Of a stretch of 64,000 nt of DNA, positions 30,760-52,295 are shown in pieces; the first letter of the stretch is position 1, and each line of letters begins with the position of its first letter. The DNA is taken from assembly GCF_003966955.1 (NCBI RefSeq), contig NZ_AP019367.1, positions 1,612,001-1,676,000 of the forward strand. The letters are read 5' to 3'. Origin of the DNA: Parolsenella catena (GTDB lineage Bacteria > Actinomycetota > Coriobacteriia > Coriobacteriales > Atopobiaceae). The notes below the pieces were generated by a model. That model was not told the DNA's origin, made no database searches, and worked only from the letters and a program-made list of their open reading frames with translations. The position numbers and the translations under genes were made by a program.

Positions 30760-30806
30760 CGACTCAGGCCCCGCACCGGCATGGCTCGCAACCAAACGCT
30801 TCCATC

Positions 30807-33861: not shown

Positions 33862-35188
33862 TAACGTACAATCTCTTGCGCACTTTCACAGCAGCATAGC
33901 CTAGATACCAAAAGACACGGCTCCGGCCTTCGGTATGATTCGAGTTGTCTAGATTCGATCATATTAGGAGGCAGAGCCATGTCCGATCCCATCGTATCAT
34001 TCGACGAGGCCGCCATGCGCGGCGAGCTCAGGGAGCTCGTCAGAAGAACAGTCGAGGACACCCTGAACGCCCTTCTCGAGGAGGAGGCCGACGATCTGAT
34101 AGGCGCCGACCGCTACGAGCGGACGGCAGGGCGCGAGGCCTACCGCGCCGGACACTACGAGCGCGGGCTCACGACCACCTCGGGCCAGGTGACCCTCAGG
34201 ATGCCCAAGCTCAAGGGCATGAGGTTCGCGACGGCGATCATCGAGCGCTACAAGCGCCGTGAGACCTCCGTCGAGGAGGCCATGATCGAGATGTACCTGG
34301 CCGGGGTCTCCACCAGGAGGATCGAGGACGTCTCCGAGATCCTGTGGGGCGCGAGCGTGTCGGCATCGACGGTGTCGAACCTCAGCGACAAGGCGTTCGA
34401 GGCCGTCGAGGAGTGGAGGAGCAGGCCGCTGACCCGCAAGTACCCCTACGTCTTCGTCGACGGCATCTACCTCAAGAGAAGCTGGGGCGGCTCCTTCGAG
34501 AACGTGGCCGTGATGGTGGCCATCGGCGTCAACGACGACGGCTACCGAGAGGTGATCGGGGCCGCCGAGGGCTTCACCGAGTCGGCCGAGTGCTGGCGCG
34601 AGTTCCTCTCCTGGCTCAAGGGCCGGGGCCTCTCTGGCGTGCGCATGTTCACCGGCGACAAGGCCGCCGCCATGACGGGCGCGATAGCCGAGGTGTTCCC
34701 GGACGCCGCCTACCAGCGCTGCACGGTGCACTTCTACCGCAACGTGCTCTCGAAGGTCCCCAAGTCCAAGCGCGCCGAGGTGGCCGCGATGCTCAAGGCC
34801 GTCCATGCCCAGGAGTCTCTGGAGGCGAGCACGGAGAAGGCCGGCCGTGTCGCCGCCAAGCTGGAGGACATGAGGCTGGCGGCGGCCGCCAAGTGCGTCC
34901 GCGACGGCGTCGCGGAGACGCTGACCTACACGCGCTTCCCCGCGCGGCACTGGAGACGCATCCGCACCAACAATGCCATCGAGCGGCTGAACCGCGAGAT
35001 CCGCCGCCGAACGCGGGTCGTCGGCACCTTCCCGGACGGCAAGAGCGCGCTCATGCTGGCGACCGCGCGCCTGAAGTACGTGGCCGACAGCGAGTGGGGG
35101 TCGAGGAGGTATCTGGACGTGTCGCTGCTGGACGAGTGATCATGCCGACGGCTGGCGGTCGCCTGCTGGAATTTGCGCAAGATTATTG
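33862..35188 (+). mobile_element. IS256-family insertion sequence
   Basis: The element is defined by imperfect terminal inverted repeats. The left end GTACAATCTCTTGCGCA and the right end (reverse complement) share the block CTTGCGCA, then TTC and AGCAG. It carries one transposase. The exact ends are uncertain by a few bases. No target-site duplication is visible, because the left flank is IS110 and the right flank is different, so a deletion or recombination followed insertion. Confidence 0.75.
33979..35139 (+). CDS. IS256-family (mutator-type) transposase
   Basis: The protein has 386 aa; its ATG at 33979 follows TAGGAGGCAG. RNase H-fold DDE residues sit in YPYVFVDGIYLKRSWGG (first Asp), FTGDKAAAMTGAI (second Asp) and the C-terminal NNAIERLNREIRRRTRVVG (Glu). 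The CTVHFYRNVLSKVPKSKR motif is diagnostic of the mutator superfamily. The frame is intact, so the element may still be active. Confidence 0.95.
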   Translation: MSDPIVSFDEAAMRGELRELVRRTVEDTLNALLEEEADDLIGADRYERTAGREAYRAGHYERGLTTTSGQVTLRMPKLKGMRFATAIIERYKRRETSVEEAMIEMYLAGVSTRRIEDVSEILWGASVSASTVSNLSDKAFEAVEEWRSRPLTRKYPYVFVDGIYLKRSWGGSFENVAVMVAIGVNDDGYREVIGAAEGFTESAECWREFLSWLKGRGLSGVRMFTGDKAAAMTGAIAEVFPDAAYQRCTVHFYRNVLSKVPKSKRAEVAAMLKAVHAQESLEASTEKAGRVAAKLEDMRLAAAAKCVRDGVAETLTYTRFPARHWRRIRTNNAIERLNREIRRRTRVVGTFPDGKSALMLATARLKYVADSEWGSRRYLDVSLLDE

Positions 35189-35870: not shown

Positions 35871-36083
35871 ATGTCTAACGGCTATAAGGAGCTCATCAAG
35901 GGTAACCCCGGCGAGACCGAGATCAGGAGCTTCCTGGTAAACGGCGACCAGGTATCTGTGACCCTGCGCATCCCCGACACCCTGCGCGACGCGGCGAAGG
36001 AGGAGGCTGCCCTTCGCGGCATGAGCTTCTCCGCCTTTGTGCGCACTTGCATGATCGAAGAGCTCGCGAAGAAGGGACAATAG
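35871..36083 (+). CDS. Ribbon-helix-helix (Arc/CopG-like) regulator
   Basis: The protein has 70 aa. The strand QVSVTLRIPD is followed by helices TLRDAAKEEAALRGMSFSAFVRTCMIEEL, the RHH dimer fold. A TATAAT box lies at 35821-35826, and a direct repeat GCATTT-N5-GCATTT just downstream could be its own operator. It is the first gene of the restriction operon (next start 3 bp after its stop) and probably its autorepressor. Confidence 0.75.
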   Translation: MSNGYKELIKGNPGETEIRSFLVNGDQVSVTLRIPDTLRDAAKEEAALRGMSFSAFVRTCMIEELAKKGQ

Positions 36084-36086
36084 CCC

Positions 36087-38213
36087 GTGACGGAGCCAAT
36101 GCACGACATCTCGGTCGAAGGCTTCATAGAGTCCTTCGACCGCCGATACCCGACTTTCATTCTCAAGACGTTGCTGTGCGACCGCACTACGGGGCGCAAC
36201 ATCATATGGGCCGACAACGAATACGAGGCCCTAGGCGACGGCTACATGGGCGATGACGAGATGACCGTCGAGAAGATCACGGGCATGAACTCCGGCGTCA
36301 TCAAGCCGCGCATCGCCAAAGAGCAGGAGAAGCAATCCCAGCGCACCAAGAGCCGCGCCGAGGTGTTCACCCCGTCATGGCTGTGCAATCAGATGAACAA
36401 CGACTTGGACGAGGCTTGGTTCGGCCGGCGCGATGTCTTCAACACCGAGATCGTTGCGGATGATGGCGCCAATACATGGACGCCGACTAGTGATCCAATC
36501 GAATTTCCAAAGTCAAAGGGACACGGCTGGCGCGCATACGTGGAGGCTACGCGGCTCGAGATCACGTGTGGCGAGGCGCCGTTTGTGTGCTCGCGCTACG
36601 ACACCGTGACGGGAGACGAGCTACCCGTAAGCGAGCGCGTAGGCTTCCTTGACCGCAAGCTTCGCGTTGTGACCGAGAAGACCAAGACTCGCAAGGAATG
36701 GGTGCGCCGGGCCCTCGACGCGCTGCGCGCGACGTACGGCTTCGAGTACCAGGGCGACAACCTGCTTATTGCTCGCGTCAATGTGCTCGAGACGTTCGTC
36801 GAGCATCTCCGCAATCGCTGGGGGTCGGGCCCCCAACAGGACGAGCTCGAGCAGGCGGCATGGATCGTTTCCTGGAACTTCTGGCAGATGAACGGCTTCA
36901 CAGACGCCGTGCCCACCAACAAGATGGGCGCCGAGGTGGAGTCGACCCTGGGGACGTTCGAGGAGCCCGAGCCGGAGCCGATGCAACCGTCGCTTTTCGA
37001 CCTGTTCGATGACGTATTCCCCGACGAGACAACCGAAGAGACCAAAGAAGAGGAGCCAAGGGAAACGGTTCCCCTCTGCGTGATATACGACTGGCAGAAC
37101 GGCGAGCCCTTCGAGTTCGCCGCATTGAAAGGTGAGGCAGCAATTATGGGAAAGAAGTTCTATGCGGTAATCGGTAATCCCCCATATCAGCTTTCAGTGG
37201 CGGAACAAGATTCTGGCAATAAGACCTATGCACCGCCCATCTATCACGAGTTTATGGACTCGGCGTTCAAGGTTTCCGACAAGGTGGAGCTTGTCACTCC
37301 CGCTAGATTCCTATTTGACGCCGGCTCAACCCCAAAGGCCTGGAACAGGAAGATGCTTAACGACCCCCATTTCAAAGTGATGAGCTATAAAGCGGATGCG
37401 TCCAGCGCCTTTCCGAATACCGACATCAAGGGCGGTGTTGCCGTTACCTATCGAGATGCTGATCGGGATTTCGGTGCGATAGAAGTGTTCACACATTTCG
37501 ATGAGCTTCGTACCATCAAAGAGAAGGTTGTAAAACATGGCATCCAACCCCTCGGCGATATCATCTTCGCGGCCGATAGCTACCACTTCACTGAAGCCAT
37601 GCACGAAGACCATCCCGAGATTCGTTATGTTGACGACGACCATGGTCTGTTGAGCAAGAACCACGACTATGACCTTAAGACAAACGTTCTCGACAACCTT
37701 AACAATGTAGTTTTCTTTGACGAGATGCCTGGCGACGGAGATAGTTGCATCAGAATCTTTGGCAGAGGTCGCGCCGGAAGAGCTTACAAGTTCATTTCCG
37801 CCAGATATATCGCTCCGCATCCGAACCTCGACAAATGGTAAGTACTTGTTCCTGCCGCCAACGGATCGGGCGCGCTTGGAGAAGTGCTTTCTACGCCCTT
37901 AATAGGGCGGCCCTTAATAGGGCATACGCAGTCCTTCATAAGCATTGGCAGTTTCAATTCCGAAGCGGAAGCTACGGCTCTCCTCAAATACATAAAATCG
38001 AAGTTCGCTCGGACCATGCTCGGAATTCTGAAGATTACGCAGCACAATCCCGCACCAAAATGGAAGTATGTCCCCCTACAGGACTTTACTTCTGACTCCG
38101 ACATCGATTGGTCGCAGTCTGTTGCTGACATCGACCGTCAGCTCTATGCGAAGTACGGCCTCGACGACGAGGAGATTCAGTTCATCGAATCCCATGTGAA
38201 GGAGATGGACTAG
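36087..38213 (+). pseudogene. Eco57I-type N6-adenine DNA methylase, interrupted by one TAA
   Basis: GTG at 36087 (MTEPMHDISVEGF). Family signatures are SRAEVFTPSWLCNQMNN, TRLEITCGEAPFVCSRYDTV, GFLDRKLRVV, YGFEYQGDNLLIARVNVL and the catalytic FYAVIGNPPYQ (NPPY 364-367). At 37839 a TAA interrupts PNLDKW-*-VLVPAANGSG; the same frame continues GHTQSFISIGSF to 38213. Read through, it would be 708 aa. The stop falls in a conserved K position (AAA/AAG to TAA), so one substitution explains it. The truncated product keeps the catalytic core but loses the last 124 residues of the recognition part. The 3' third is lower in GC. It pairs with the next gene's nuclease-helicase. Confidence 0.85.
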
Positions 38214-38215
38214 CA

Positions 38216-41200
38216 ATGGCGAGCATCGACATCTCCCAGATCATCGAGACCACCGCTCCCGCGGTGCCGCAGATCTATGCCTACACCACGCCCGAGATCG
38301 TCCGCCACAACGGCTGGACCAAGATCGGCTACACCGAGCAGGACGTGCGCGAGCGAATCAAACAGCAAACGCACACCGCCGACGTGCAGTGGCATCTGGA
38401 GTGGAGCGGCAACGCCACGTGGGAGCACCGTGCGGGCACGTTCCATGACACCGACTTCCACGCCTACCTCGAGAAGCAGGGCGTCGAGCGCGAACCCAAG
38501 AAGGAATGGTTCAAGATTAGCGGCGAGGAGTCTCACCAGCAGTTCTACCGGTTCCGCGACACCGACGGCGTGCTGGACGCACCCGGCGCTGCCTCCTACA
38601 CCCTGCGCGCCGAGCAGCAGCGCGCAGTGGAGCAGACGGGAGCCTTCGCCCGCGCCCATTGGGACGAGGGCGGCGCGCACGGCGGCGAGTTCCTGTGGAA
38701 CACCAAGCCGCGCTTCGGCAAGACGCTCACCGCATACGACCTGTGCCGCAGTATCGGCGCGCAGAAGGTGCTCATCGTCACCAACCGCCCTGCCATCGCC
38801 AACTCCTGGTACGACGACTACGTGAAGTTCGTGGGCTTGGAGGGCGGCTACCGCTTCATCAGCGGCGTGGACGCTCTGACCGGCAAGCCCTACTGCCTCA
38901 GCCGCGAGGAGTACCTGCGCGCCATCCGCAACGACCCGGAAGGCCCCAAGGGGTTCATCGAGTTCGTGAGCCTTCAGGACCTCAAGGGCTCCATCCGCTT
39001 CGGCGGCGTGTACCAGAAGCTCGACGAGGTGGCCGACCTCACCTGGGACGTGCTCATCATCGACGAGGCACACGAGGGCGTGGACACCTTCAAGACCGAC
39101 GTGGCATTCGACCACATCAAGCGCCGCTTCACGCTGCACCTCTCTGGCACGCCCTTCAAGGCCATCGCAAACGAGAAGTTCGCCGACGACGCCATCTACA
39201 ACTGGACCTATGCCGACGAGCAGCAGGCCAAGCGTGACTGGCCTGCCGACTCTGAGCAGCCGAACCCCTACGCCAACCTCCCCAAGCTCAACCTGCTCAC
39301 CTACCAGATGAGCGACATCGTCGAGCAGGAGGCCCGCGGCGGCATGGAGATTGATGGCGAGCAGACCGAGTTCGCCTTCGACCTCAACGAGTTCTTCTCG
39401 ACCAAGCACAACGGCGGCTTCGTGCACGACGCCGACGTGGATAAGTTCCTCGACGCGCTCACCACGCAGGAGAAGTTCCCGTTCTCGACACCCGGGCTGC
39501 GCGACGAGCTGCGTCACACGTTCTGGATGCTCAACCGCGTCGACTCCGCCCGCGCCCTCGCCAAGAAGCTGCAGGCGCACCCCGTCTTCAAGGATTACGA
39601 GGTGGTACTCGCTGCTGGCGACGGCAAGATCGACGCCGATGACGAGAACGAGAAATCGCTCGACAAGGTACGCCGCGCGATCAAGGACCACGACAGGACC
39701 ATCACCCTTTCGGTCGGCCAGCTGACCACGGGCGTGACCGTGCCGGAGTGGACCGCCGTGCTCATGCTCTCGAACATGGCGAGCCCCGCACTGTACATGC
39801 AGGCGGCCTTCCGCAGCCAGAACCCGTGCCTGTTCGACCTGGGCGGCGGCAACTACGCGCGCAAGGAGAACGCCTACGTCTTCGACTTCGACCCGGCGCG
39901 CACGCTTACTATCTTTGAGCAGTTCGCCAACGACCTGTACGGCGAGACCGCGCGCGGCGGCGGCGATGTCGAAACGCGCGAGCGCCATATCCGTCAGTTG
40001 CTGAACTTCTTCCCCGTCTACGGCGAGGACGAAGAGGGGCAGATGGTCGAGCTCGACGCCGAGCAGGTGCTCAGCGTGCCGAGGCGCATCCATGCCCGCG
40101 AGGTGGTCAGGCGCGGCTTTATGAGCAACTTCCTGTTCCAGAACATCGCGAGCGTCTTCCGCGCGCCGGCAGAGGTCGTGGAGATCATCCAGCGCTTCGA
40201 TCCCTACGAGCAGGGCAAGGCACAGAACGCCGAGAAGAACAAGGTCGAGATCGATGAGGGCACGGCCGACGAGCTCTCCATCAACGACGAGGGCGAGGTG
40301 GAGATTCCCGACGAGCAGGTCGTAGGCAAGGCTGCGGACATCTTCGGGCCGAAGGTCTACGGCGACATCGCCGTCGAATTCTCAGGCCACATGGACGACA
40401 TCGCGAAAGCCCACGAGGCCGATGACGACGATCGGGTGATGCTCGACAACCTCAAGGAGGCCTTCAAGCAGAGCGTGACCGCGCCTCTGGTACAGGCCGC
40501 CAAGGAGAGCTACGGCAGCGAGCTCAAGCCGCGCCAGCAGCAGCAGATCGAGCGCAAGGTCCAGGCGGACGCCGACATCCAACTCAACCGCCAGGTCGGC
40601 GACTACCAGATTCAGGCGCGCCGCATCGAGCAGTCGCGCAAGGACGAGCTCAAGGCGGCGACAAGCGAGACCGAGCGCGCCGAGGTGAACAAGCGCCATG
40701 ACGAGCAGAAAGCGGAGGCGTTCCAGACGCTCGCCCAGAAGCTCGAGGACTCCCGCGAGGAGCTCGTGCAACGCGCCGGCGAGACCGTGGTGCGCGAGGT
40801 GGAGACGGCGAAGAAAGAGGACGAGAAGCAGGGCATCGAGGACAAGGTGCGCGCTCATCTGCGCGGCTTCTCGCGTACCATCCCGTCGTTCCTCATGGCC
40901 TACGGCGAAGAGGGCACGACGCTCGCGAACTTCGACACCGTGATCCCCGCTGACGTCTTCCAGGACGTCACGAGCATCACCGTTGATGAGTTCCGCTTTT
41001 TGCGTGATGGCGGCGACTACACCGATGGCGAGACCGGCGAGGTAAAGCGCTTCGTTGGGCACCTCTTCGACGAGGTCGTATTCAACGACTCCGTGAGCGA
41101 GTTCATCAAGCTGCGCGAACGCCTGGCCAATTACTTCGACGAGTCCCAGACAGAGGACATCTTCGACTACGTGCCGCCCCAGAAGACCAATCAGATCTTC

Positions 41201-41599
41201 ACGCCGCGCAACGTCGTGGTTCAGATGGTGGACCTCTTCGAGAAGGAGAACCCGGGCTGCTTCGATGACCCGAGCCACACCTTCGCCGACCTGTATATGA
41301 AGTCTGGCCTCTACATCACCGAGATCATCAAGCGCCTGTACCGAAGCGAGGGCATGAAGGCCGCCTTCCCGGACGACCGCGAGCGTTTGGACCACATCCT
41401 GGAGCATCAGGTGTTCGGCATCGCGCCCACCAAGATTATCTACGAGATTGCCACCCACTTCATCCTGGGTTTCCACGACGAGGTCGGCCAAGGATGTGAC
41501 TCTAACTTCGAGCTCGCGGACGCCGCGGAGCTCGCCAAGGAGGGCACGCTGGAGGCATACGTCGAGCGCGTCTTCGGGCCCAAGCTGGGCGAGGCGTAG
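38216..41599 (+). CDS. GIY-YIG nuclease - superfamily 2 helicase restriction protein
   Basis: A protein of 1127 aa starting 2 bp after the methylase stop. The N-terminus is a GIY-YIG/T5orf172-like nuclease (VPQIYAYT at 18-24, WTKIGYTEQDVRERI at 34-48). The SF2 motor follows: Walker A PRFGKT (165-170), DEAH (283-286), LSGTPFKA and a helicase C part with TTGVTVPEW and QAAFRSQNP. A long charged coiled coil (about 770-880) leads to a C-terminal domain with KTNQIFTPRNVVVQMVDLFE and FADLYMKSGLYI, resembling a methylase recognition half without NPPY. It should translocate on and cut unmethylated DNA. If the methylase is really inactive, this gene would be toxic unless silenced. Confidence 0.85.
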   Translation: MASIDISQIIETTAPAVPQIYAYTTPEIVRHNGWTKIGYTEQDVRERIKQQTHTADVQWHLEWSGNATWEHRAGTFHDTDFHAYLEKQGVEREPKKEWFKISGEESHQQFYRFRDTDGVLDAPGAASYTLRAEQQRAVEQTGAFARAHWDEGGAHGGEFLWNTKPRFGKTLTAYDLCRSIGAQKVLIVTNRPAIANSWYDDYVKFVGLEGGYRFISGVDALTGKPYCLSREEYLRAIRNDPEGPKGFIEFVSLQDLKGSIRFGGVYQKLDEVADLTWDVLIIDEAHEGVDTFKTDVAFDHIKRRFTLHLSGTPFKAIANEKFADDAIYNWTYADEQQAKRDWPADSEQPNPYANLPKLNLLTYQMSDIVEQEARGGMEIDGEQTEFAFDLNEFFSTKHNGGFVHDADVDKFLDALTTQEKFPFSTPGLRDELRHTFWMLNRVDSARALAKKLQAHPVFKDYEVVLAAGDGKIDADDENEKSLDKVRRAIKDHDRTITLSVGQLTTGVTVPEWTAVLMLSNMASPALYMQAAFRSQNPCLFDLGGGNYARKENAYVFDFDPARTLTIFEQFANDLYGETARGGGDVETRERHIRQLLNFFPVYGEDEEGQMVELDAEQVLSVPRRIHAREVVRRGFMSNFLFQNIASVFRAPAEVVEIIQRFDPYEQGKAQNAEKNKVEIDEGTADELSINDEGEVEIPDEQVVGKAADIFGPKVYGDIAVEFSGHMDDIAKAHEADDDDRVMLDNLKEAFKQSVTAPLVQAAKESYGSELKPRQQQQIERKVQADADIQLNRQVGDYQIQARRIEQSRKDELKAATSETERAEVNKRHDEQKAEAFQTLAQKLEDSREELVQRAGETVVREVETAKKEDEKQGIEDKVRAHLRGFSRTIPSFLMAYGEEGTTLANFDTVIPADVFQDVTSITVDEFRFLRDGGDYTDGETGEVKRFVGHLFDEVVFNDSVSEFIKLRERLANYFDESQTEDIFDYVPPQKTNQIFTPRNVVVQMVDLFEKENPGCFDDPSHTFADLYMKSGLYITEIIKRLYRSEGMKAAFPDDRERLDHILEHQVFGIAPTKIIYEIATHFILGFHDEVGQGCDSNFELADAAELAKEGTLEAYVERVFGPKLGEA

Positions 41600-41602
41600 C
41601 GC

Positions 41603-42916
41603 GTGGCGGAAGTAGTCGACAGCAAACAGGATGGGCGTGCAGAGGCTGCGCGAGCGGCGGTGAGTGCGGCACGGCGTGAGGATACCGAACTTTGCGCCCG
41701 TCTAGTCTTTCGCGTCTCGCGCAATGAGCTAAGGCGCGTGGGGATCACCACGCCCATCGCTCTCTACGATGAGCTGAAGCAGGTCTTCTGGAACGCAGAC
41801 GAGGGCGTCACCCTGGGCGACCACCTCTCTGTCGGGTTCGGCAAGGTCGACCGCCGCCGTCAGGTGCGCGCCTTCGCCGAGCGCCATGCGGACGAGCCCA
41901 GAAACGTCGCCGCGAAAGCCTACGAGCGCGAATACGGCTTCAGCGCAGGCATCGCCGCGATATGGCTCGACCTGTTCGCCGAGCCCGCGGACGTGAGCTT
42001 CTCGGAGTGGCTTGGCGTCGAGGTCGCTGAATGCCCGACGGGCGCCCCGGCCTCCCGTGCGGATGTGCCCGTAGCGCACGACACCGAGCGCGAGGCACCC
42101 ACCCTCGAGGGCTTCCTTGCCCGGGAGCTTGCCGGCCGCATCTGCGACGAAGGCCTCGTGCGTCGGCGCTTCGCCTTCGAGTTTCCCGACGATCCGCCCG
42201 AAGCGCTCGACCGCGGCATCGAGGATGCGGGCTACTACGAGGACCGCGGCTTGCTCTTCCGAGAAGGGAGCACCCCGAACGACCACTTCACGCGGCTGCT
42301 GGCCGAGCATCCGTCTTTCGCGAAGGGCGACGCCGGCTTCGAGAACGCCGTGTGGCAGCACCCCGCCTTCCGCCAGGTGCTGCGCCAGGCGCTTTCGGAC
42401 CACCGCTTACTTCTCTACGAGGGCGACAGCTACATCTCGTTCTCGCGGCTGCACGACGTGCTAGGCGCGCGCATGGCGGACATCGAGTCGTACGCGCCCG
42501 CGGTGAGCGTGGATGCGCCCGAAGGCGAGCCCTTCACCGTGGCGAGCCTGCGCGCGGGCGGCGCCACTCCGCATCCGCTGTACGGGCTGGACATGCCCGA
42601 CGACTTCTACGAGGGACTGCTCGACGCGGGAGGGCTCCTGCGCAGCTGCACGCTCGCCGGAACCAAGGTGTTCGTCGCCGGAGGCGAGGGGCGGCTTTCC
42701 GCAGCCGACCTCATCGAGTGGATCGTCGCCCACCATGAGGGAATCGAGCGCGATGACCTGCCGAGACTGCTCGCGAACGATCTGGGCATCACGTGCCCGG
42801 CACCGCTTCTGACGACGACCATTTACAACTCCGACGTCTACTACGACGACATCGGGGACGCATATTACTCATCCATGGAGGCATGGAAGAAGGAGGCACG
42901 AAATGAGCTTGCTTGA
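41603..42916 (+). CDS. Unknown 437-aa protein of the composite restriction operon
   Basis: GTG at 41603, 3 bp after the helicase stop; its end overlaps the next gene by 14 bp, so it is part of the operon. Acidic and mostly helical. The region RVSRNELRRVGITTPIALYD may be a DNA-contacting helix-turn-helix. A repeated type of block (FRQVLRQALSDHRLLLYEGD, DLIEWIVAHHEGIERDDLPR) resembles winged-helix modules. The C-terminus (YYDDIGDAYYSSMEAWKKE) is Tyr-rich. No catalytic motif or known family. Likely a sensor or adaptor between the nuclease-helicase and the ParB-SNF2 pair. Confidence 0.7.
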   Translation: MAEVVDSKQDGRAEAARAAVSAARREDTELCARLVFRVSRNELRRVGITTPIALYDELKQVFWNADEGVTLGDHLSVGFGKVDRRRQVRAFAERHADEPRNVAAKAYEREYGFSAGIAAIWLDLFAEPADVSFSEWLGVEVAECPTGAPASRADVPVAHDTEREAPTLEGFLARELAGRICDEGLVRRRFAFEFPDDPPEALDRGIEDAGYYEDRGLLFREGSTPNDHFTRLLAEHPSFAKGDAGFENAVWQHPAFRQVLRQALSDHRLLLYEGDSYISFSRLHDVLGARMADIESYAPAVSVDAPEGEPFTVASLRAGGATPHPLYGLDMPDDFYEGLLDAGGLLRSCTLAGTKVFVAGGEGRLSAADLIEWIVAHHEGIERDDLPRLLANDLGITCPAPLLTTTIYNSDVYYDDIGDAYYSSMEAWKKEARNELA

Positions 42917-44114
42917 GGAAGGGATCGCGACTGGCAACGTCCTGCCGACGGGTCGCAAGGAGAAGCACTCCATCGACAACGTGACGCGCGACTTCGACAT
43001 CTACCGCATCAAGTGCGATCTGCTGTTCTACAACGACCAGAACGACCGCATCGCCACTTGGGTAAGCGAGTACAACTCCGCGCAGGGCGCGGATCTGCTC
43101 GCCCTTGGCCGCGACGAGTACAACGGCGTCATCGAGGACTTCATCGTCGAGAGCAACCCCGGCGCGCTCAGGAAGACCGAGAAGAGCATCGCCCTTCGCG
43201 GCCAGCTTAGGCCGGGCATCGTGCTCAACGACGGACGCGTCATCGACGGCAACCGACGCCTGACCTGCGTCCGCCGCCTCGCGCGGGCGAACAACGAGGC
43301 GGGCTGGTTCGAGGCCGCCATCCTCGACGACGCCACAGGCAGCGACCCCAAGCGCATCAAGCTGCTCGAGCTCGCCATCCAAATCGGCGAAGAGGAGAAG
43401 GTGGCGTACGATCCCGTCGACCGCCTCGTCGGCGTATACCGCGACGTGGTTAAGAACCACCTCATAACCCCTGCGGAGTACGGCAACGCGACGGGCATGA
43501 CCGAGGCGGAGGTGAAAAAACTCGTCGACCGCGCCCAGTACATGGAGGAGTTCCTCGAATTCTGCCAGGCCCCCGAGCAGTACCACCTCGCCCGCGCCCT
43601 CAAGGTCGATGGCCCCTTGGGCGAGTTCAGCCGCGTGCTGAAGAAGTACGACAACAGGCGCGACAAACAGCTTGTCAAACGACTCATGTTCGCCAACATG
43701 GTGGTGCAGCCCGAGGGCGACATCACCCGATACGTGAGAGACTTCGGCAGCGTGGCAGGCACGGATGCGGAGGCCGACTTCAAGGCCGCCGAGCTGCAGG
43801 CCATGTCCGAGCTCCTCGAGAAGATGGGTCCCGACGCCCTCACGCGCGAGAAGGTGAGCGAGCTGCGCTCGGACGGCAACCTCGTCGACGGCTTCAAGCG
43901 CGCAGGCGACCGCGCAAGAGAGACCGTGCGCCGCGTCAAGCTCATGGACACGCCCGCCAAGAAATCCGCCGACTGCCTCTCCGAGCTCGAGAAGATCCTT
44001 CCCGAGATGCTCGACGTGCTGGGACCCGACGAGCTCGAGAAGGTGCGCCGCAACCTCGTTGCCGTCGCCGACAAGGTGGAAGAGCTGATCGGTGAGATCG
44101 ATGAGCGCGCCTAG
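42903..44114 (+). CDS. ParB/Srx-fold protein
   Basis: The protein has 403 aa; its ATG at 42903 overlaps the previous gene. The ParB nucleotide-binding signature is clear: QLRPGIVLNDGRVIDGNRRL (101-120), preceded by an IVESNPGALRKTEKSI loop. A helix-turn-helix-like part (ITPAEYGNATGMTEAEVKKLVDRA without the long run quoted further) and a long C-terminal coiled coil follow. Outside chromosome segregation, ParB-fold proteins serve as CTP switches, nucleases or DNA-modification readers. Here it is translationally coupled to a helicase (ATGA-type overlap of 14 bp), so a role as DNA-loading or sensing clamp for the helicase is plausible. Confidence 0.78.
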   Translation: MSLLEEGIATGNVLPTGRKEKHSIDNVTRDFDIYRIKCDLLFYNDQNDRIATWVSEYNSAQGADLLALGRDEYNGVIEDFIVESNPGALRKTEKSIALRGQLRPGIVLNDGRVIDGNRRLTCVRRLARANNEAGWFEAAILDDATGSDPKRIKLLELAIQIGEEEKVAYDPVDRLVGVYRDVVKNHLITPAEYGNATGMTEAEVKKLVDRAQYMEEFLEFCQAPEQYHLARALKVDGPLGEFSRVLKKYDNRRDKQLVKRLMFANMVVQPEGDITRYVRDFGSVAGTDAEADFKAAELQAMSELLEKMGPDALTREKVSELRSDGNLVDGFKRAGDRARETVRRVKLMDTPAKKSADCLSELEKILPEMLDVLGPDELEKVRRNLVAVADKVEELIGEIDERA

Positions 44115-46044
44115 GGCCGTCGTCTGCTACGACGAGGCGCGCCCCGGCATGTACCTGCGCATCGAGGGGCAAGACATCGCCTCGTTCATGGCCTCGGCCG
44201 CATGGCGCGCCTGGCTGTACTACCCGGCGAGCGCCGTCGACGGCACCGATCGCGACCGCATCCTACTCGACGGCGGCATGGGCCTTCGCGAGTGCCAGGA
44301 CATGCTCGAGGCGATCATGGAGGCCGACGGCCACGGCGTCGAGGTCGCGGTTGACCCGAGCTTCGGCGCCTTCGTGAACGCCGGCGAGACCTACATCCGC
44401 GAGCGCTCCGAGGTGGGGTTGGCCATCAAGGCGCAGACCGCCGAGGGCATCGCCGACGACCCCCAGCTGGGGCCGCGCTTCCGGGAGTTCCGCGACGTAG
44501 TGAACGCCTCGATGGTGCGTCCCCTGCGCGACCGGCAGATGCTCGACGCCTTCTTCATGGCGACGGTTGGGCGCGCGGCCGACTTCTCGGTGCCCGGCGC
44601 CGGCAAGACCGCGACGGTGCTCGGCGTGTTCGCCTACCTTCGCCATTTGGGGCTCGCGCGCCGCATCGTGGTGGTTTGCCCCAAGAACGGCTTCGAGTCG
44701 TGGGAGAAGGAGTGGGTCGCCACCTTCGGGGATAAGCTGCCTTTGAGCTGCTTCTCGCTGGGAGACCCCGCCATAGCGGCGATGTCGACCGAGCGCAGGC
44801 GCAACGCGCTGTCGCTCGACAGCGGCGCGTGCAACCTGTTCACGTTCAACTACGAGTCGCTCTCGGGCTACGTGCGGGAGCTGCATGCCATCATCCCCGA
44901 CCAGACCCTGCTCGTCTTCGACGAGGTGCACCGGGTGAAGGCCATCGGCGGCAGGCGCGCGGAAGCCGCGCTCGAGGCGGCCGACGGCGCGAAGTTCGTG
45001 ATCGCCCTTACGGGAACGCCCATCCCGAACACCTACCAGGACATCTACAACCTGCTGCACATCCTGTACCCCGAGGACTACGACACGTTCTTCGGCTACG
45101 AGCCGGGCGAGCTCCGCGCGCCCGATGCGGACCTCCAGGCAAGCCTCAACGACAGCCTGGCGCCCTTCTTCTGCCGAACGAACAAGGACGAGCTCGGCGT
45201 GCCGCGCCCGGAGCCCGACGAGATCGTGGAGGTCGAGGCGACGCCCGATGAGGACACATTGCTGCGAGTCCTGTACGCGTCTTGCCCCAACGCGCTCGCG
45301 AGGATCATACGCACCCTGCAGCTCGAGAGCGACCCCGAGATGCTCTGCTCTGCAGTGGACCCAGGCGACCTCGAGTACGTGCTCGACCAGGTCGGCGATG
45401 ACTACTCGGATATCGACTACGTCGACTTCTCGCAGACGTTCTACGAGGCCATCGAGCGAAGCCGCCCGAGCTCGAAGCTCGTGGCGTGCGAGCGGCTCGT
45501 GGAGCGCATCGTCGCCGAAGGCCGCCCCGTCATAGTATGGTGCATCTTCGTACGCAGCATCAGCAACCTCCGCCGCGACCTCGCCGCCATGGGGATTCCG
45601 GCAGAGGCGATCTACGGCGCCACGCCACAGGAAGAGAGACGCGAGATTCTGGACGACTTCCGCGCGGGGCGCTTCAGGGTGCTCGTGACCAACCCGCAGA
45701 CGCTTGCCGAGTCGGTCTCTCTGCACAGCGTCTGCCACGACGCGGTGTATTTCGAGTACAGCTACAACTTGGTGCACCTGCTGCAGTCAAAGGACCGCAT
45801 ACACCGTCTGGGCCTGCCCGACGACCAGAAGACGCGCTACTACTTCATGCGCGAGAAGTTCATGCGCGACGGCAGGGAGCTATCCCTCGACGCCGTGATC
45901 TACGACCGCTTGAAGGAGAAGGAGCAGACGATGCTCGACGCCATCGACCGCGGCTGCCTTGAGGGCGGCTACCTCGATGACGAGGACCTGCGTATCGTCT
46001 TCGAGCGCCTGCTGGGAGAAGATGCCAAGAGCCTGGAATACTAA
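44101..46044 (+). CDS. SNF2-like DEAD/DEAH-box helicase
   Basis: The protein has 647 aa from the ATG at 44101. After a 140-residue own N-terminal domain comes the motor: PGAGKT (165-170), VVVCPKNGFESWEKEW (Ia), FDEVHRVK (DEVH 274-277), ALTGTPIPN (III), and the C-terminal lobe with VIVWCIFVRSISNLRRDLA, TNPQTLAESVSLH and QSKDRIHRLG (motif VI, SNF2 form). It resembles the SNF2 ATPases of phage-defence systems such as DISARM DrmD and Zorya ZorD, but the neighbours of those systems are absent. Last gene of the tight operon. Confidence 0.85.
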   Translation: MSAPRAVVCYDEARPGMYLRIEGQDIASFMASAAWRAWLYYPASAVDGTDRDRILLDGGMGLRECQDMLEAIMEADGHGVEVAVDPSFGAFVNAGETYIRERSEVGLAIKAQTAEGIADDPQLGPRFREFRDVVNASMVRPLRDRQMLDAFFMATVGRAADFSVPGAGKTATVLGVFAYLRHLGLARRIVVVCPKNGFESWEKEWVATFGDKLPLSCFSLGDPAIAAMSTERRRNALSLDSGACNLFTFNYESLSGYVRELHAIIPDQTLLVFDEVHRVKAIGGRRAEAALEAADGAKFVIALTGTPIPNTYQDIYNLLHILYPEDYDTFFGYEPGELRAPDADLQASLNDSLAPFFCRTNKDELGVPRPEPDEIVEVEATPDEDTLLRVLYASCPNALARIIRTLQLESDPEMLCSAVDPGDLEYVLDQVGDDYSDIDYVDFSQTFYEAIERSRPSSKLVACERLVERIVAEGRPVIVWCIFVRSISNLRRDLAAMGIPAEAIYGATPQEERREILDDFRAGRFRVLVTNPQTLAESVSLHSVCHDAVYFEYSYNLVHLLQSKDRIHRLGLPDDQKTRYYFMREKFMRDGRELSLDAVIYDRLKEKEQTMLDAIDRGCLEGGYLDDEDLRIVFERLLGEDAKSLEY

Positions 46045-46114
46045 GAGGCCGAACGGCGCACTGACGATATTGGCTCATAAGTAACAACTGCGAAGGAAAG
46101 ATAGGGCTTTAAGG

Positions 46115-47818
46115 ATGGATGCAGGAAAATCTACGATAAGCGGCGTGTTCAACGGATCGCGCCTGCTCGAAATACCTTTCTACCAAAGGGCGTACGTCTG
46201 GGGAGAAGAGCAATGGGAGCGCTTCCTCGGCGACATGGAGTTCGTCACGGCTTCGAAGCGACCTTATTTCCTGGGCTCGATCATCCTGAAGCAAGCCTCC
46301 TCCGGCAACACTTGGTCCGAGGTGTCCGAGGTTCGCACAGTCATCGACGGCCAGCAGCGCCTCACGACCATGGTCATCTTCTTCAAGGCACTCTGCGCGA
46401 GAATCGACGCCGATAGGCTGTTCGAGCGAGATTTCGTCCTGGAGACCGGCGAAGTCGCCTTGAGACATGGCAAGTACGACCGGCAGGATTTCGAGAAGGT
46501 CGTCAGCGCCACGGGCTGCGAGCCTGTCGAGGGCTCCTCGTCCATCGTCCTTGCCTACAACTATTTCCTCAAGAACATCGACCCAGAGAAGGTCGACAGG
46601 AACACGATCAAGTCGAACGTCCAGTTCGTCTGCATCGATCTCACCGAGGGCGAGGACGAGCAGCAGATATTCGACACCATCAACTCGCTCGGGGTGCGCC
46701 TGACGACGGCGGAGCTCCTCAAGAACTACTTCTTCAACCGCGAGAACGAGCAGGCGTTCAAGGAGTGCTGGGAGGACGTCTTCGAACCCACGGCGGAGAA
46801 GAGGGAGTATTGGGAGCAGGAGGTCGTTACCGGGCGCATCAAGCGCACGCTCGTCGACCTGTTCTTCGACGCGTTCCTCCAGATCCTGGTTCAGGACAAG
46901 AAGCGCGGCGTCACGACCGAGGACAAGCTCTTCTATTCGCGCACGTCCAACCTCTTCCAGTCCTACAAGGACTTCATCGGCAGGTACTGCAACGGAGACA
47001 AGGACGAGATCCTCGACAGCATGAAGGCGTATGCCGAGGTGTTCGAGTCCACGTTCGACCCCGGCTACTGCGACGCGGACATCCCCTCCGCTCCCGGCGT
47101 CGAGCGCCTGAACGTGCTGATATTCGGCCTCAAGAACTCGACGCTCATCCCGTACGTGCTCTACGTTCGCAAGAACGCGGAGTCTTCGGGCGAGGAATCC
47201 GAGGTCTTCGCCCTGCTTGAGAGCTACATCGTCCGCCGAACGCTGGTTCAGGCGACCACGAAGAACTACAACAGGCTGTTCACCTCGCTGATCCTGAACG
47301 AGGTGAAGGACGCGGAGACGCTGAGGAAGGCTCTTGAAGCAAACGAAGAGGCGACGACGTACATGCCCGGCGATGACGAGGTTCGAAGGGCGTTCGAGGA
47401 ATCGTGTCTGTACAACCTTCAGTCCAAGGGCGTTCTCTATCTGCTGGAAAGCGCCATTCGCCCAGGCATGAGCAGCACGGCCCTGCTCGGGTTCAACCAG
47501 TACACCCTCGAACACATGATGCCCAAGAAGTGGCGCAACAAATGGGGAGCCCTCGACGATGAGGCTGCCACGCGAAGGGACAGGAAGCTCCTCACGCTCG
47601 GCAACCTCGCCATCATCACGCATTCGCTCAACGCCTCCATCCGCGATGCCGATTGGCCCACCAAGAAGCAGGGAAAGGGATACAAGGACGGTCTTGCCCT
47701 CTGCGCCGCCGGCCTTGCGACCATGGCCGGCGCCCTGGAGAAGGAGTCTTGGGACGAGGGCGATATCGCCGATCGCGCCGAATGGCTTGCGGACAAGGCG
47801 TTGGAGGTCTGGCGTTAA
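46115..47818 (+). CDS. GmrSD-type restriction endonuclease (DUF262-DUF1524 fusion)
   Basis: The protein has 567 aa. The N-terminal DUF262/ParB-like NTPase part has EIPFYQRAYVWGEEQW (19-34) and VIDGQQRLTTMVIF (76-89). The C-terminal DUF1524 HNH-type nuclease has TLEHMMPKKWRNKWG, then LLTLGNLAIITHSLNASI (His-Asn-Asn metal finger). This one-chain GmrS-GmrD layout is that of type IV enzymes that cut modified (for example glucosylated hydroxymethyl-cytosine) phage DNA, and of BrxU. It complements the methyl-dependent system before it: phages that evade one by base modification meet the other. It is 70 bp behind the helicase and may share its transcript. Confidence 0.88.
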   Translation: MDAGKSTISGVFNGSRLLEIPFYQRAYVWGEEQWERFLGDMEFVTASKRPYFLGSIILKQASSGNTWSEVSEVRTVIDGQQRLTTMVIFFKALCARIDADRLFERDFVLETGEVALRHGKYDRQDFEKVVSATGCEPVEGSSSIVLAYNYFLKNIDPEKVDRNTIKSNVQFVCIDLTEGEDEQQIFDTINSLGVRLTTAELLKNYFFNRENEQAFKECWEDVFEPTAEKREYWEQEVVTGRIKRTLVDLFFDAFLQILVQDKKRGVTTEDKLFYSRTSNLFQSYKDFIGRYCNGDKDEILDSMKAYAEVFESTFDPGYCDADIPSAPGVERLNVLIFGLKNSTLIPYVLYVRKNAESSGEESEVFALLESYIVRRTLVQATTKNYNRLFTSLILNEVKDAETLRKALEANEEATTYMPGDDEVRRAFEESCLYNLQSKGVLYLLESAIRPGMSSTALLGFNQYTLEHMMPKKWRNKWGALDDEAATRRDRKLLTLGNLAIITHSLNASIRDADWPTKKQGKGYKDGLALCAAGLATMAGALEKESWDEGDIADRAEWLADKALEVWR

Positions 47819-48252: not shown

Positions 48253-49323
48253 TTACCCCCTCGCTCCATCGAGCGCGGCGGCCATCTCGTCCTGCTTCGT
48301 GGGGAACAGGTGCGCGTAGCGGTAGGTGATGTCCACCGCCTCGTGGCCCATGCGCTCGGCGATGGCCAGCGCGGAGAAGCCCATCTCGATCAGCAGGCTC
48401 ACGTGGCTGTGGCGTATGTCGTGTATGCGGATGCGCTTCACGCCCGACGCCTTGCACCCGCGCTCCATCTCGTGGGCCAGGAAGTGCTTGGTCACGGCGA
48501 ACAGGCGCTCGTCGGGGGCGACGTCGTCGCGCATCTCGATGAAGTCCGCCATCTCGTCGCGAAGGAAGGCGGGCATGACGATCGTGCGCACGGACTTGGG
48601 CGTCTTGGGGTCGGTCACGGTGTCCACGCCGTGGAGGCTCTGGTACGACTTGTTGATGCGCAGCCGCGAGCTATCCAGCATGAAGTCGGACGGCGTGAGC
48701 GCCAGGAGCTCGCCGCAGCGTATGCCCGTCCAGTACAGCAGCTCGAAGGCGTGGAACGACAGCGGCTTGTCCATGACCGCCTCGCTGAACCTCAGGTACT
48801 CGTCCTTGGTCCAGAACTGCATCTCGCCGCCCTTCTTCGAGCCTATCTTGTCGACCCTGCGCACCGGGTTGTCGGTGAGGCCGTAGTAGCGCTCGGCGTG
48901 GTTGAAGATGGCGTTCAGTTGGTTGTTCACCGTGCGCAGGTACGTCGGCGCCCAGGGCTTCCCGTCGGCGTCCCGGTGCTCGGTGAGCTCGTTTTGCCAC
49001 CTGATGAGGTCGATCGGCCTCACGTCGCACATGCGCATGTCTCCGAAGAACGGCACGAGCTTGTCGTTGATGATGTACTCCTTGGTGATCCACGTGTGCT
49101 CGCGTACGCGCGGCTTCACCTCGGAGGCGTACACCTCGACGAACTCGGAGAACGTCATGTCCATGGCCCCGCCGTTAAGGCTCTTGAACTGGCTCTCCCA
49201 CACTGCGGCCTCCACCTCGGAGGAGAAGCCGCGCTTCGTCTTGTGGCGCTTCGAGCCGCGGGCGTCGCGGTAGTAGCACTGCACGTAGAACGTGCCGTTG
49301 TTGCCATCCTTGTACACGGGCAT
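48253..49323 (-). CDS. int: Tyrosine recombinase (island integrase)
   Basis: The protein has 356 aa. The N-terminal arm-binding domain has the AP2-like start YKDGNNGTFYVQCYYRDARG. The core-binding SAM-like domain is at about 60-160. The catalytic domain shows Arg in TGIRCGELLAL, HxxR in IHDIRHSHVSLL, His in MGHEAVDITYRYAH and the nucleophile Tyr near the end of that motif. It sits 1.4 kb from the guaA junction with an excisionase gene directly upstream, the standard end of an integrative element. Its arm-type sites are probably the TTTACTCCCC repeats beyond the XRE gene. Confidence 0.93.
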   Translation of the reverse strand: MPVYKDGNNGTFYVQCYYRDARGSKRHKTKRGFSSEVEAAVWESQFKSLNGGAMDMTFSEFVEVYASEVKPRVREHTWITKEYIINDKLVPFFGDMRMCDVRPIDLIRWQNELTEHRDADGKPWAPTYLRTVNNQLNAIFNHAERYYGLTDNPVRRVDKIGSKKGGEMQFWTKDEYLRFSEAVMDKPLSFHAFELLYWTGIRCGELLALTPSDFMLDSSRLRINKSYQSLHGVDTVTDPKTPKSVRTIVMPAFLRDEMADFIEMRDDVAPDERLFAVTKHFLAHEMERGCKASGVKRIRIHDIRHSHVSLLIEMGFSALAIAERMGHEAVDITYRYAHLFPTKQDEMAAALDGARG

Positions 49324-50169: not shown

Positions 50170-50606
50170 TTTACTCCCCATTGCATGCAAAGGCATTTTC
50201 GGCGCACCTGGGGAGTAAATGACGCGGTGGCTTACATGGCGGCACACGGCGGTACCCCGCGGCATTTCCCCTGATTACTCCCGCTTTCCTTGAGACGGTG
50301 AGATTCTTTACTCCCCATTAACGACCTGGGAAAACGCCGCACAGAGACCGTCAAAAGGCCTATTGAGTTCGATTTGAGTTTCAAAGGACCTAAAACGGCC
50401 CCTTTTCGTTCTCGGGGACAAAAATCGCGCGTCTACTCACTCGGGATAAATCCTTACTCCCATTCCTCCGAATACCGCCCCGTGCCTTGCCGTCTCGAAA
50501 CACGGGGAGTAAATCGCGAAATTGCAGGTGAAAGGGAGTAAATAGCCAAAGAAAAAGCCTCCGTTCCGACGCGGGAACAGAGGCTCGATAATCGGATTTA
50601 CTCACC
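50170..50606. repeat. Cluster of TTTACTCCCC repeats (candidate integrase arm sites)
   Basis: Copies lie at 50170-50179 (+), 50210-50219 (-), 50273-50282 (+, GATTACTCCC), 50307-50316 (+), 50453-50462 (+, CTTACTCCCA), 50504-50513 (-), 50533-50542 (-, AGGGAGTAAA) and 50597-50606 (+, TTTACTCACC). The crossover core CTACTCCCACTCGAT contains the same TACTCCC. The interval 50083-50699 has no gene. Three of the sites are conserved in the left boundary copy (30816, 30845, 30909). Confidence 0.75.
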
Positions 50607-50714
50607 AATGTCGCTGGCGGCTTTGCCGTGACTCTCGTACAAAACGAAACTCAGCAGCACAGTGCGGCACTCAAAAATACAGGTCAGAACCCTGTCAGAC
50701 TACTCCCACTCGAT
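50494..50714. repeat. Island boundary repeat, right copy (att-like, guaA side)
   Basis: Partner of the repeat at 30807-31026, same orientation. The 15-bp core at 50700-50714 is the guaA stop end (codons for IEWE and TAG). Excision between the two cores would leave an intact guaA followed by a terminator. Confidence 0.82.
50551..50585 (-). terminator. Present guaA terminator, supplied by the island
   Basis: On the minus strand AGCCTCTGTTCC pairs with GGAACGGAGGCT and is followed by TTTTTC. It replaces the original terminator, now 19.7 kb away at 30862-30896. Confidence 0.7.
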
Positions 50715-52295
50715 CGTCGCGGGCGGCTTGGACGTGATGTCATAGCAGACGCGGTTGGCGCCGGGGACCTCGGCCACGATGCGGCCAGAGATCCTCGCCA
50801 GCACGTCGTAGGGCAGCTTCGCCCAGTCGGCCGTCATGGCGTCGCTGGACTCAACGGCGCGCAGGATGATCGGGCGCTGGTAGGTGCGCTCGTCGCCCAT
50901 GACGCCCACGCTCTTGATGTCGGGCAGCACGGCGAAGTACTGCCAGCAGCTGTGCTCGGAGTTGCGGTCGCCCGTCTCCTCGAACAGCCTCTGATTGTAG
51001 GCGTCGAGCTCCTCGCGCACGATGGCGTCGGCGTTCTTCAGGATCTCGAGCTTCTCCTTGTCCACCGCACCGATGATGCGGATGGCAAGGCCCGGGCCCG
51101 GGAACGGCTGACGGAACACGATGTGCTCGGGTAGGCCCAGAGCCAGGCCCAGCGCACGCACCTCGTCCTTGAAGAAGTGGTCAAGCGGCTCGATAAGGTC
51201 AAAGTGCACACCGTCCGGGAACGGAATGAGGTTGTGGTGGCTCTTGATGGTGCTCGCCTTGCCGCCCGTCTTGCGCGCGCCAGACTCGATGATGTCCGGG
51301 TAGATGGTGCCCTGGGCCAGGTACTTCACGGGCTTGCCGTCGGTCTCGAGCTGCTGGGCGACCGCGAAGAACTCCTTCCAGAACTGCGTGCCGATGATGC
51401 GGCGCTTCTGCTCCGGCTCCGTCACGCCGGCGAGGAGCTCGGCGTAGCGGTCCTCGGCGTGCACGTGGATGAAGTCAACGTCGAACTGCTTGGTGAAGAC
51501 CTCCTCGACCTGCTCGGGCTCGCCCTTGCGCAGCAGACCATGGTTGATGAACACGCAGGTCATCTGCTTGCCCACGGCGCGCGCGCCAAGGGCGGCGACT
51601 ACGGAGGAGTCAACGCCGCCGGACAGCGCGAGAATCACGCGGTCGTCGCCGACCTTCTCGCGGAACTGCGCCGTCATGGTCTCCACGAGGTTGTCCATGG
51701 ACCAGTTGGCCTCGAGCCCGCAGATGCCAAACAGGAAGTTCTTGAGCAGCTGCTGGCCGTACTCGGTGTGCTTGACCTCGGGGTGGAACTGCGTGGTGTA
51801 GATCTTGCGCTCGGCGTTCTCCATCGCGGCCACGGGGCACACGTCGGTGCTCGCCGTCACCACAAAGCCCTCGGGCACGTTGTTCACGGCGTCAAAGTGG
51901 CTCATCCAGACCGTCTGGTTCGCCGGGGTGTCGGCGAACAGCTTGCTGTCGGCCTTCACGTGCAGCTCGGCGCGGCCGTACTCGCCCACCTCGGGGTGGA
52001 ACACGGTGCCACCCAGCGTCACGGCCGTGATCTGATGGCCGTAGCAGAAGCCCAGCACGGGGATGCCCAGCTCGTAGATCTTGGGGTCAACGCGCGGCGC
52101 ACCCTCCTCGTTCACGCTGGCGGGGCCGCCGGACAGGATGATGGCGCTGGGGCCCGCCGCAGAGATCTCCTCGGCAGTGGCGTCACACGGCATGATCTCG
52201 GAGTAGACATGCAGGTCACGGACGCGACGCGCGATGAGCTGCCCGTACTGGGCGCCAAAGTCGAGAACGATGACCTTCTGCTGGCTTGTCTGCAT
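50700..52295 (-). CDS. guaA: GMP synthase (glutamine-hydrolysing)
   Basis: The protein has 531 aa from the ATG at 52295 (MQTSQQKVIVLDFGAQYGQL) with GGAGGGG upstream; the longer ORF is rejected. It makes GMP from XMP, ATP and glutamine. The class I amidotransferase domain has the catalytic Cys in LGFCYGHQ and His in QFHPEVKHT. The ATP pyrophosphatase has LALSGGVDSS, and the dimerisation end is DITSKPPATIEWE. Its last codons are the integration site of the island, which keeps the reading frame intact. Confidence 0.97.
   Translation of the reverse strand: MQTSQQKVIVLDFGAQYGQLIARRVRDLHVYSEIMPCDATAEEISAAGPSAIILSGGPASVNEEGAPRVDPKIYELGIPVLGFCYGHQITAVTLGGTVFHPEVGEYGRAELHVKADSKLFADTPANQTVWMSHFDAVNNVPEGFVVTASTDVCPVAAMENAERKIYTTQFHPEVKHTEYGQQLLKNFLFGICGLEANWSMDNLVETMTAQFREKVGDDRVILALSGGVDSSVVAALGARAVGKQMTCVFINHGLLRKGEPEQVEEVFTKQFDVDFIHVHAEDRYAELLAGVTEPEQKRRIIGTQFWKEFFAVAQQLETDGKPVKYLAQGTIYPDIIESGARKTGGKASTIKSHHNLIPFPDGVHFDLIEPLDHFFKDEVRALGLALGLPEHIVFRQPFPGPGLAIRIIGAVDKEKLEILKNADAIVREELDAYNQRLFEETGDRNSEHSCWQYFAVLPDIKSVGVMGDERTYQRPIILRAVESSDAMTADWAKLPYDVLARISGRIVAEVPGANRVCYDITSKPPATIEWE

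What the first reader, a model, noticed from the sequence alone, without database searches (positions are those of the whole stretch)
35871..47818. Composite defence operon: RHH, Eco57I methylase, GIY-YIG helicase, unknown protein, ParB-like, SNF2 helicase (plus GmrSD)
Seen: six same-strand genes with gaps of 2-3 bp or overlaps of 14 bp, then GmrSD 70 bp on. The methylase and GIY-YIG helicase alone form a known restriction pair. The added unknown 437-aa protein, ParB-fold protein and SNF2 ATPase overlap each other and are placed as if part of the same machine. Known systems with SNF2 helicases (DISARM, Zorya) or with ParB-like/DNA-sulfur proteins lack this set, and their hallmark genes (DUF1998, PglZ, ZorAB, Dnd/Dpt) are absent. 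Inference: a two-motor system in which ParB-SNF2 detects or remodels DNA for the nuclease, or a second independent system stacked behind the first.
Basis: partly seen in the sequence, partly recalled or inferred. Interest (0 to 1): 0.82.

Follow-up and report, generated by a model that had tools for sequence, protein, structure and literature searches.

The report
ParB-SNF2 add-on for bacterial defence operons
Two genes in this operon, a ParB-like DNA-clamp protein and a SNF2-type DNA motor, form an apparently undescribed conserved pair that bacteria have attached again and again to quite different anti-virus systems (restriction-modification types I, II and III, McrBC, BREX), which suggests a general helper module for DNA-based immunity.

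Summary
The operon is real. Six same-strand genes (35871-46044) are tightly packed, with a GmrSD gene 70 bp on. Two corrections: the methylase is cut by an in-frame TAA at 37839, and the ParB/SNF2 overlap is 23 bp.

The conserved unit is the pair ParB+SNF2. In 26 of 26 ParB clusters (70% identity) from Actinomycetota, Bacilli and Alphaproteobacteria, SNF2 follows directly on the same strand; the two trees share 25 of 29 splits. The partner changes: Eco57I methylase plus GIY-YIG helicase (here), type III Mod-Res, BglII-like type II, C5 methylase with Sau3AI-like or NOV_C nuclease, type I, McrBC, and inside BREX operons. The 437-aa protein (U) is an optional third member; its C-terminal domain recurs fused to sigma-region-4, Sau3AI-like or PglZ-N-terminal domains, as an adaptor would.

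Methylase target domains are swapped (20% identity) while U, ParB and SNF2 stay 98-99% identical, so the module probably does not read the methylated sequence. AlphaFold gives ParB the two-domain fold of CTP-switch ParB/Noc/KorB proteins.

Best reading: a clamp-plus-translocase accessory of modification-based defence. The association is well supported; the mechanism is inferred. PADLOC has no model for ParB or U; no description was found in the papers searched.

The parts
35871..36083 (+). small ribbon-helix-helix protein, first gene of the operon; likely operon repressor/antitoxin-like DNA binder
   Evidence: 70 aa, 3 bp before the methylase; NCBIfam YlcI_YnfO_N 36.5 bits over its cut-off of 30; 90-100% identical in all full-operon relatives
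36087..37841 (+). Eco57I-type DNA methyltransferase, N-terminal 584 aa incl. NPPY motif; ended by a premature TAA at 37839-37841
   Evidence: single open frame in L010-L013 and L102; near-identical copies have AAA at this codon
37842..38213 (+). continuation of the methyltransferase frame after the stop (C-terminal target-recognition part; possible internal GTG start at 37884)
   Evidence: (PADLOC MTase_II positions 254-348 match)
38216..41599 (+). restriction subunit: N-terminal GIY-YIG-like nuclease (from reading the sequence; no Pfam hit), ResIII-type SF2 helicase, C-terminal methylase-like region
   Evidence: 91-97% identical in the more distant full-operon relatives
41603..42916 (+). U: 437-aa protein, the short form of a family whose long forms carry sigma-70 region-4 HTH and RNAP alpha-CTD domains; conserved C-terminal domain; proposed adaptor
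   Evidence: no Pfam/PADLOC/NCBIfam hit
42903..44114 (+). ParB-family protein (Srx/CTPase-like N domain with DGNRR, HTH domain, C-terminal long helices)
44092..46044 (+). SNF2-family ATPase, presumed double-stranded DNA translocase
   Evidence: (SNF2-rel_dom 50 bits, Helicase_C 43.7 bits)
46115..47818 (+). GmrSD-type (type IV) restriction endonuclease; adjacent, replaceable, not part of the core
   Evidence: missing or replaced in L010, L013, L101

Best explanation
ParB+SNF2 (42903-46044) is a conserved two-gene accessory module of modification-based defence systems, with U (41603-42916) as an optional adaptor that docks it onto its partner. Proposed mechanism: the ParB-family protein acts as a nucleotide-switched clamp on DNA, the SNF2 protein is the double-stranded DNA translocase that works with it, and the partner supplies the nuclease (here the GIY-YIG/SF2 protein; elsewhere type III Res, BglII-like, Sau3AI-like, NOV_C, PLD, or the BREX effectors). 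Because the methylase target domain is swapped without change in the module, the module most likely does not read the methylated sequence itself; it would add a translocating, sequence-independent step (tracking, remodelling or marking invading DNA). Shown: gene association, tight co-inheritance of ParB and SNF2, partner exchange, ParB fold, SNF2 motor domains, independence from methylase specificity, domain fusions of U. Inferred: clamp behaviour, complex formation, translocation, adaptor role of U, anti-phage function. In this genome the methylase is broken, so the R-M pair here may be silent while the module is intact.
For: ParB and SNF2 adjacent on one strand in 26/26 ParB clusters, usually overlapping or within 15 bp. 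ParB and SNF2 trees share 25 of 29 splits; 500 label shuffles reach at most 3. Partners: type III Mod-Res, N6/N4 methylase plus BglII-like nuclease, C5 methylase with NOV_C or Sau3AI-like nuclease and often Vsr, type I, McrBC-like pair (by reading), upstream of BrxA-BrxB-BrxC-PglX-PglZ-BrxL and between PglX and PglZ. In one 8.9-Mb genome the only C5-methylase match lies about 1.1 kb from the ParB gene. At least 12 partner changes on the tree. Specificity test: L011 vs L012, methylase C-terminal part 20% identical, U 97.9, ParB 99.3, SNF2 97.8%. U fusions: PglZ-N-terminal-like (34% over 112 aa, E 4e-11), Sau3AI-like nuclease, sigma region 4, RNAP alpha-CTD. ParB model pLDDT 85.7; top matches KorB, Noc and CDP/CTP-analogue-bound ParB, Z about 10 over residues 17-350. 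Nuclease-like domain on SNF2 itself in Exiguobacterium (PLDc_2, 25.5 bits, just below its cut-off of 27). Purifying selection: dN/dS ParB 0.01-0.09, SNF2 0.06-0.10, U 0.20-0.23.
Against: No phage-protection data. Two plasmid copies (L019, L020) show U+ParB+SNF2 with no recognised nuclease or methylase nearby, so a partner may not be needed. ParB has N where partition ParBs have the catalytic E of GERR (general knowledge), so NTP hydrolysis is uncertain. Loci were found by ParB (or U) similarity, so SNF2 without ParB would not have been seen; no matched background of random neighbourhoods was computed. One partial ParB (L110) has no SNF2 beside it, and L112 holds only fragments of both. U could not be folded (pLDDT 41).
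Confidence: 0.45

Rival explanations
1. ParB+SNF2(+nuclease) is a restriction system whose self/non-self mark is the partner's DNA methylation; the pair is the restriction half and the methylase the protection half, as in DISARM or BREX-like logic.
For: In many loci the only other recognised genes are one methylase and one NOV_C nuclease directly after SNF2 (L027, L039, L040, L054, L055, L057).
Against: Methylase chemistry (N6/N4 and C5) and target domain change while ParB/SNF2 do not follow; in type II, III and BREX loci the partner already has its own restriction part.
Confidence: 0.2
2. Guard or back-up: the module stays quiet and acts when the partner is inhibited or bypassed (anti-restriction proteins, modified phage DNA), as described for PARIS and GmrSD-type genes lying in BREX operons.
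For: Same niche as known back-up effectors (between PglX and PglZ, after R-M genes; PMC12839542 for GmrSD); independent of methylase specificity; long U forms carry sigma-like and RNAP alpha-CTD domains that could touch host transcription.
Against: No toxin-like domain in ParB or SNF2; no direct evidence for a trigger.
Confidence: 0.2
3. Coincidental stacking in defence islands: the pair is an independent defence system that merely travels with others.
For: Defence genes cluster in islands; U+ParB+SNF2 is found without a recognised partner on Enterococcus plasmids.
Against: Stop-start overlaps with the partner operon (e.g. Res/ParB overlap of 11 bp in L023), insertion within BREX operons, U fused to partner-type domains.
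Confidence: 0.11
4. Partition or maintenance function for the mobile element that carries it (ParB as a segregation protein).
For: ParB fold; carried on plasmids and on an integrated element here.
Against: No ParA in the operon here; also in BREX operons on long chromosomal contigs; obligatory SNF2 neighbour is not a partition feature.
Confidence: 0.04

Closest known systems
Chromosomal/plasmid ParB, Noc and KorB (CTP-dependent clamps)
   Same: predicted fold of N-terminal CTPase-like domain plus HTH domain; RR of the GxRR motif
   Different: no meaningful sequence-level match in the PDB and none over the Pfam cut-off; N in place of the catalytic E; gene always followed by SNF2
DISARM, Zorya, Dpd, Dnd restriction (systems with SNF2-like motors)
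   Same: SNF2 ATPase near a DNA methylase or modification enzyme
   Different: SNF2 scores far under every curated cut-off (DrmD 32.9 vs 610, DpdE 25.9 vs 500, dnd_restrict_1 30.8 vs 600, ZorD 12.1 vs 1500); the window's ParB and U have no PADLOC model
Dpd (DpdB ParB-like ATPase plus DpdE SNF2)
   Same: a ParB-like protein and a SNF2 protein in one defence operon (DpdB described in PMC12839542)
   Different: here the two are adjacent and without the other Dpd genes; no PADLOC DpdB match for ParB
GmrSD and PARIS as BREX-embedded accessories
   Same: accessory genes lodged in or next to modification-based operons
   Different: different proteins; ParB-SNF2 spans R-M types I, II and III as well as BREX
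Type III R-M and Eco57I/GIY-YIG R-M
   Same: the partner operons
   Different: ParB-SNF2 is an added component, not part of these definitions

Membership tests
ParB family | ParB N (Srx-like CTPase) plus HTH domain fold | tested here: met
   pLDDT 85.7, ParB/Noc/KorB best matches, Z 9-10.6
ParB family | GERR-type nucleotide motif | tested here: inconclusive
   G116-N117-R118-R119 invariant in 21 rows; E replaced by N
ParB family | CTP switch and parS-like loading | not testable with these tools
   needs biochemistry
SNF2 ATPases | SNF2-rel and Helicase_C domains over the Pfam cut-off | tested here: met
   (50.0 and 43.7 bits)
DISARM | DrmD-type SNF2 over NCBIfam cut-off | tested here: not met
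   32.9 vs 610
DISARM | DrmA, DrmB (DUF1998) in the operon | tested here: not met
   no such hit among the operon proteins scanned
Dpd | DpdE over NCBIfam cut-off; DpdB-type ParB | tested here: not met
   DpdE 25.9 vs 500; no match for ParB
Zorya | ZorD over cut-off, ZorA/ZorB | tested here: not met
   ZorD 12.1 vs 1500; no ZorAB hit among the operon proteins
Dnd/phosphorothioate restriction | dnd_restrict_1 over cut-off, DndBCDE | tested here: not met
   30.8 vs 600; no Dnd hit among the operon proteins
Eco57I-type methylase | Eco57I domain with NPPY | tested here: met
   52.8 vs 25.3 bits; NPPY
Eco57I-type methylase | intact reading frame in this genome | tested here: not met
   TAA at 37839
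GmrSD | GmrSD_N and GmrSD_C domains | tested here: met
   117.7 and 60.3 bits
BREX (as partner in L107/L114, L108/L113, L111/L115) | BrxA, BrxB, BrxC, PglX, PglZ around the module | tested here: met

The most novel reading that the evidence does not exclude
ParB-SNF2, with U as adaptor, is a universal plug-in for DNA-modification-based immunity: a nucleotide-gated clamp driving a SNF2 motor that upgrades type I, II and III R-M, McrBC and BREX alike, a two-gene defence component that moves as one unit between all these classes.
Probability: 0.35. Interest if true: 0.9.

Novelty: new variant of a known kind. Interest (0 to 1): 0.77.

Why it matters
A pair of genes that stays together while its partners change across nearly every class of modification-based defence points to a step these systems share but that seems unstudied, such as how invading DNA is tracked or what happens when restriction fails. 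It would also bring ParB clamps, known from chromosome segregation, into immunity. The L. lactis, lactobacillus and Enterococcus plasmid copies make it testable, and the family gives a marker (DGNRR ParB followed by SNF2) for annotating many loci now called hypothetical.

Tried and rejected
Filing under DISARM, Zorya, Dpd or Dnd: scores far under curated cut-offs. Trio as an obligatory three-gene unit: rejected, U is absent from most lineages. GmrSD as part of the machine: rejected, exchanged or missing in close relatives. Folding U437: five close sequences only, pLDDT 41, so no fold claim. Viral-contig scan with U: pattern not conserved enough, then no relatives. PDB sequence search with the ParB profile: only helical or coiled-coil noise. 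Plasmid search with the L039 ParB: no match. Paper searches for ParB with SNF2/restriction terms: no description of this pair found by term searches in PMC12839542, PMC10853773, PMC3710099, PMC12458937 or PMC6098607; subscription papers were not searchable.
Full report
Observation. Pfam confirms Eco57I, ResIII, SNF2 and GmrSD domains.

State of the methylase. Nearly identical operons (about 99.8-99.96% DNA identity over 12.8 kb) occur in five other Coriobacteriales genomes, among them Collinsella and Olsenella. Those compared base by base have AAA at the window's stop codon, but four Cs instead of five at 37183, a -1 frameshift in the codons for the catalytic NPPY motif (for four genomes; one search shows the same break at codon 365/366 for the fifth). 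So all six recent copies carry a broken methylase, by two different lesions, while U, ParB and SNF2 are at least 99.8% identical and open. The copies are too young for this to prove selection. More distant relatives (L010-L013, L102) have a single open methylase frame. One of them, L102, has a broken SNF2.

The unit. Relatives of ParB were gathered from genomes, plasmids, phages and viral contigs and their neighbourhoods scanned with profile HMMs built here. Among 57 full-length ParB loci in 26 clusters at 70% identity, SNF2 follows directly on the same strand in every case, mostly overlapping or within 15 bp. Trees of 32 ParB and SNF2 proteins share 25 of 29 splits; shuffled labels share at most 3. 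Prevalence is low: 18 of 395 genomes in the order, 5 of 396 sampled in the phylum. Two of the order's hits are partial: L110 lacks SNF2 and L112 holds fragments of both.

The partners. Type III Mod-Res-ParB-SNF2 operons in Enterococcus, Lactococcus and lactobacilli. N6/N4 methylase, BglII/BamHI-like endonuclease, ParB, SNF2, NOV_C nuclease in L052, L068, L077 (the BglII hit of L052 is just under cut-off). C5 methylase, ParB, SNF2, NOV_C, often with Vsr, in alphaproteobacterial plasmids, 8.6-8.9-Mb actinobacterial genomes, a streptococcal phage and viral contigs. C5 methylase with Sau3AI-like endonuclease in Priestia, Lactiplantibacillus and others. HsdS-HsdR in Enterococcus lactis. An McrBC-like pair in L015 (by reading the sequence). 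BREX: in L107/L114 U-ParB-SNF2 lies upstream of BrxA-BrxB-BrxC-PglX-PglZ-BrxL; in L108/L113 and L111/L115 it lies between PglX and PglZ of a BrxA-BrxB-BrxC-PglX-PglZ operon (in L113 the BrxABC genes are read by their match to the L115 proteins). Mapped on the ParB+SNF2 tree, the partner type changes at least 12 times among 11 states. In genome G297 the only C5-methylase match in 8.9 Mb lies about 1.1 kb from ParB. No matched background of random neighbourhoods was computed beyond that.

The unknown 437-aa protein (U). It has no match in Pfam, PADLOC or NCBIfam. It is the short form of a family whose long forms (about 815-1578 aa) carry a sigma-70 region-4 HTH (33.4 bits, over cut-off, in L019) and RNAP alpha-CTD domains (three stretches, 85.7 bits, in L016). 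Its C-terminal domain also occurs fused to Sau3AI/MutH-like nuclease (L022, L053, L078) and to a PglZ-N-terminal-like domain in the BREX copies (34% identity over 112 aa, E 4e-11). A domain that is joined to pieces of each partner is what an adaptor would look like; this is inference.

ParB. AlphaFold model with 21 sequences, pLDDT 85.7. Best solved matches are KorB, Noc and CDP- or CTP-analogue-bound ParB, Z 9-10.6, covering both the nucleotide and the HTH domain. GNRR is invariant; the catalytic E of partition ParBs is N (the role of that E is from general knowledge).

Does the module read the methylation? L011 and L012 (both Bifidobacterium) differ wholly in the methylase C-terminal part (20% identity) yet agree at 97.9% in U, 99.3% in ParB, 97.8% in SNF2; conversely the window and L012 share the methylase C-terminal part (94%) but U is only 89% identical. 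The module therefore does not follow methylase specificity. All genes tested are under purifying selection; U evolves faster than ParB and SNF2.

Mechanism. Shown: conserved pair, exchangeable partners, folds, independence from methylase specificity. Inferred: ParB as nucleotide-switched clamp, SNF2 as translocase acting with it, partner or fused domain (NOV_C, PLD-like) as nuclease, U as adaptor. Whether it restricts in its own right, assists the partner, or backs it up when it fails is open; a form that needs the partner's methylation as its mark is the least favoured by the specificity test.

Known or new. PADLOC 2.0.0 has no model matching the window's ParB or U, and the SNF2 is far under the cut-offs for DrmD, DpdE, ZorD and the Dnd enzyme. 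The papers searched describe GmrSD (ParB-HNH), DpdB and DndB but not this pair. Subscription literature and newer defence catalogues were not available, so novelty is 'not found', not 'proved'.

Noticed in passing
window 37183 and 37839: Six near-identical operon copies in different genera all have a broken methylase, by two different lesions: a one-base shortening of a C tract in the NPPY codons (five genomes) or a premature TAA (window).
   Followed up: yes
window 37893-37925: 15-bp tandem duplication (ggcccttaatagggc) in frame in the methylase C-terminal part.
   Followed up: no
window 30802-31030 and 50465-50771; 48253-49323 (-): Island with tyrosine integrase apparently inserted at the 3' end of guaA (50700-52556, -), with repeated end sequences.
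   Followed up: partly
window 31482-32444 (+): Abi_2 family gene (68 bits) within the same island: a further likely defence gene.
   Followed up: no
window 33979-35139 (+): Mutator-family transposase next to the operon.
   Followed up: no
L108 8366-9574; L115 8030-9235 (-): Fusion of a PglZ-N-terminal-like domain to the U C-terminal domain inside BREX operons.
   Followed up: partly
L014 6626-9442 (-): SNF2 with a C-terminal extension (residues about 660-938) that reads like a PD-(D/E)XK nuclease; no Pfam hit.
   Followed up: no
L102 6797-8749 (-): A relative with an open methylase frame but broken SNF2, the reverse of the window.
   Followed up: no
L009/L018 (window 39818): One-base deletion splits the GIY-YIG helicase gene in one of the near-identical copies.
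   Followed up: partly
L010 14585-17987: GmrSD replaced by an ATPase-like 710-aa gene and a DUF4268 gene after SNF2.
   Followed up: no
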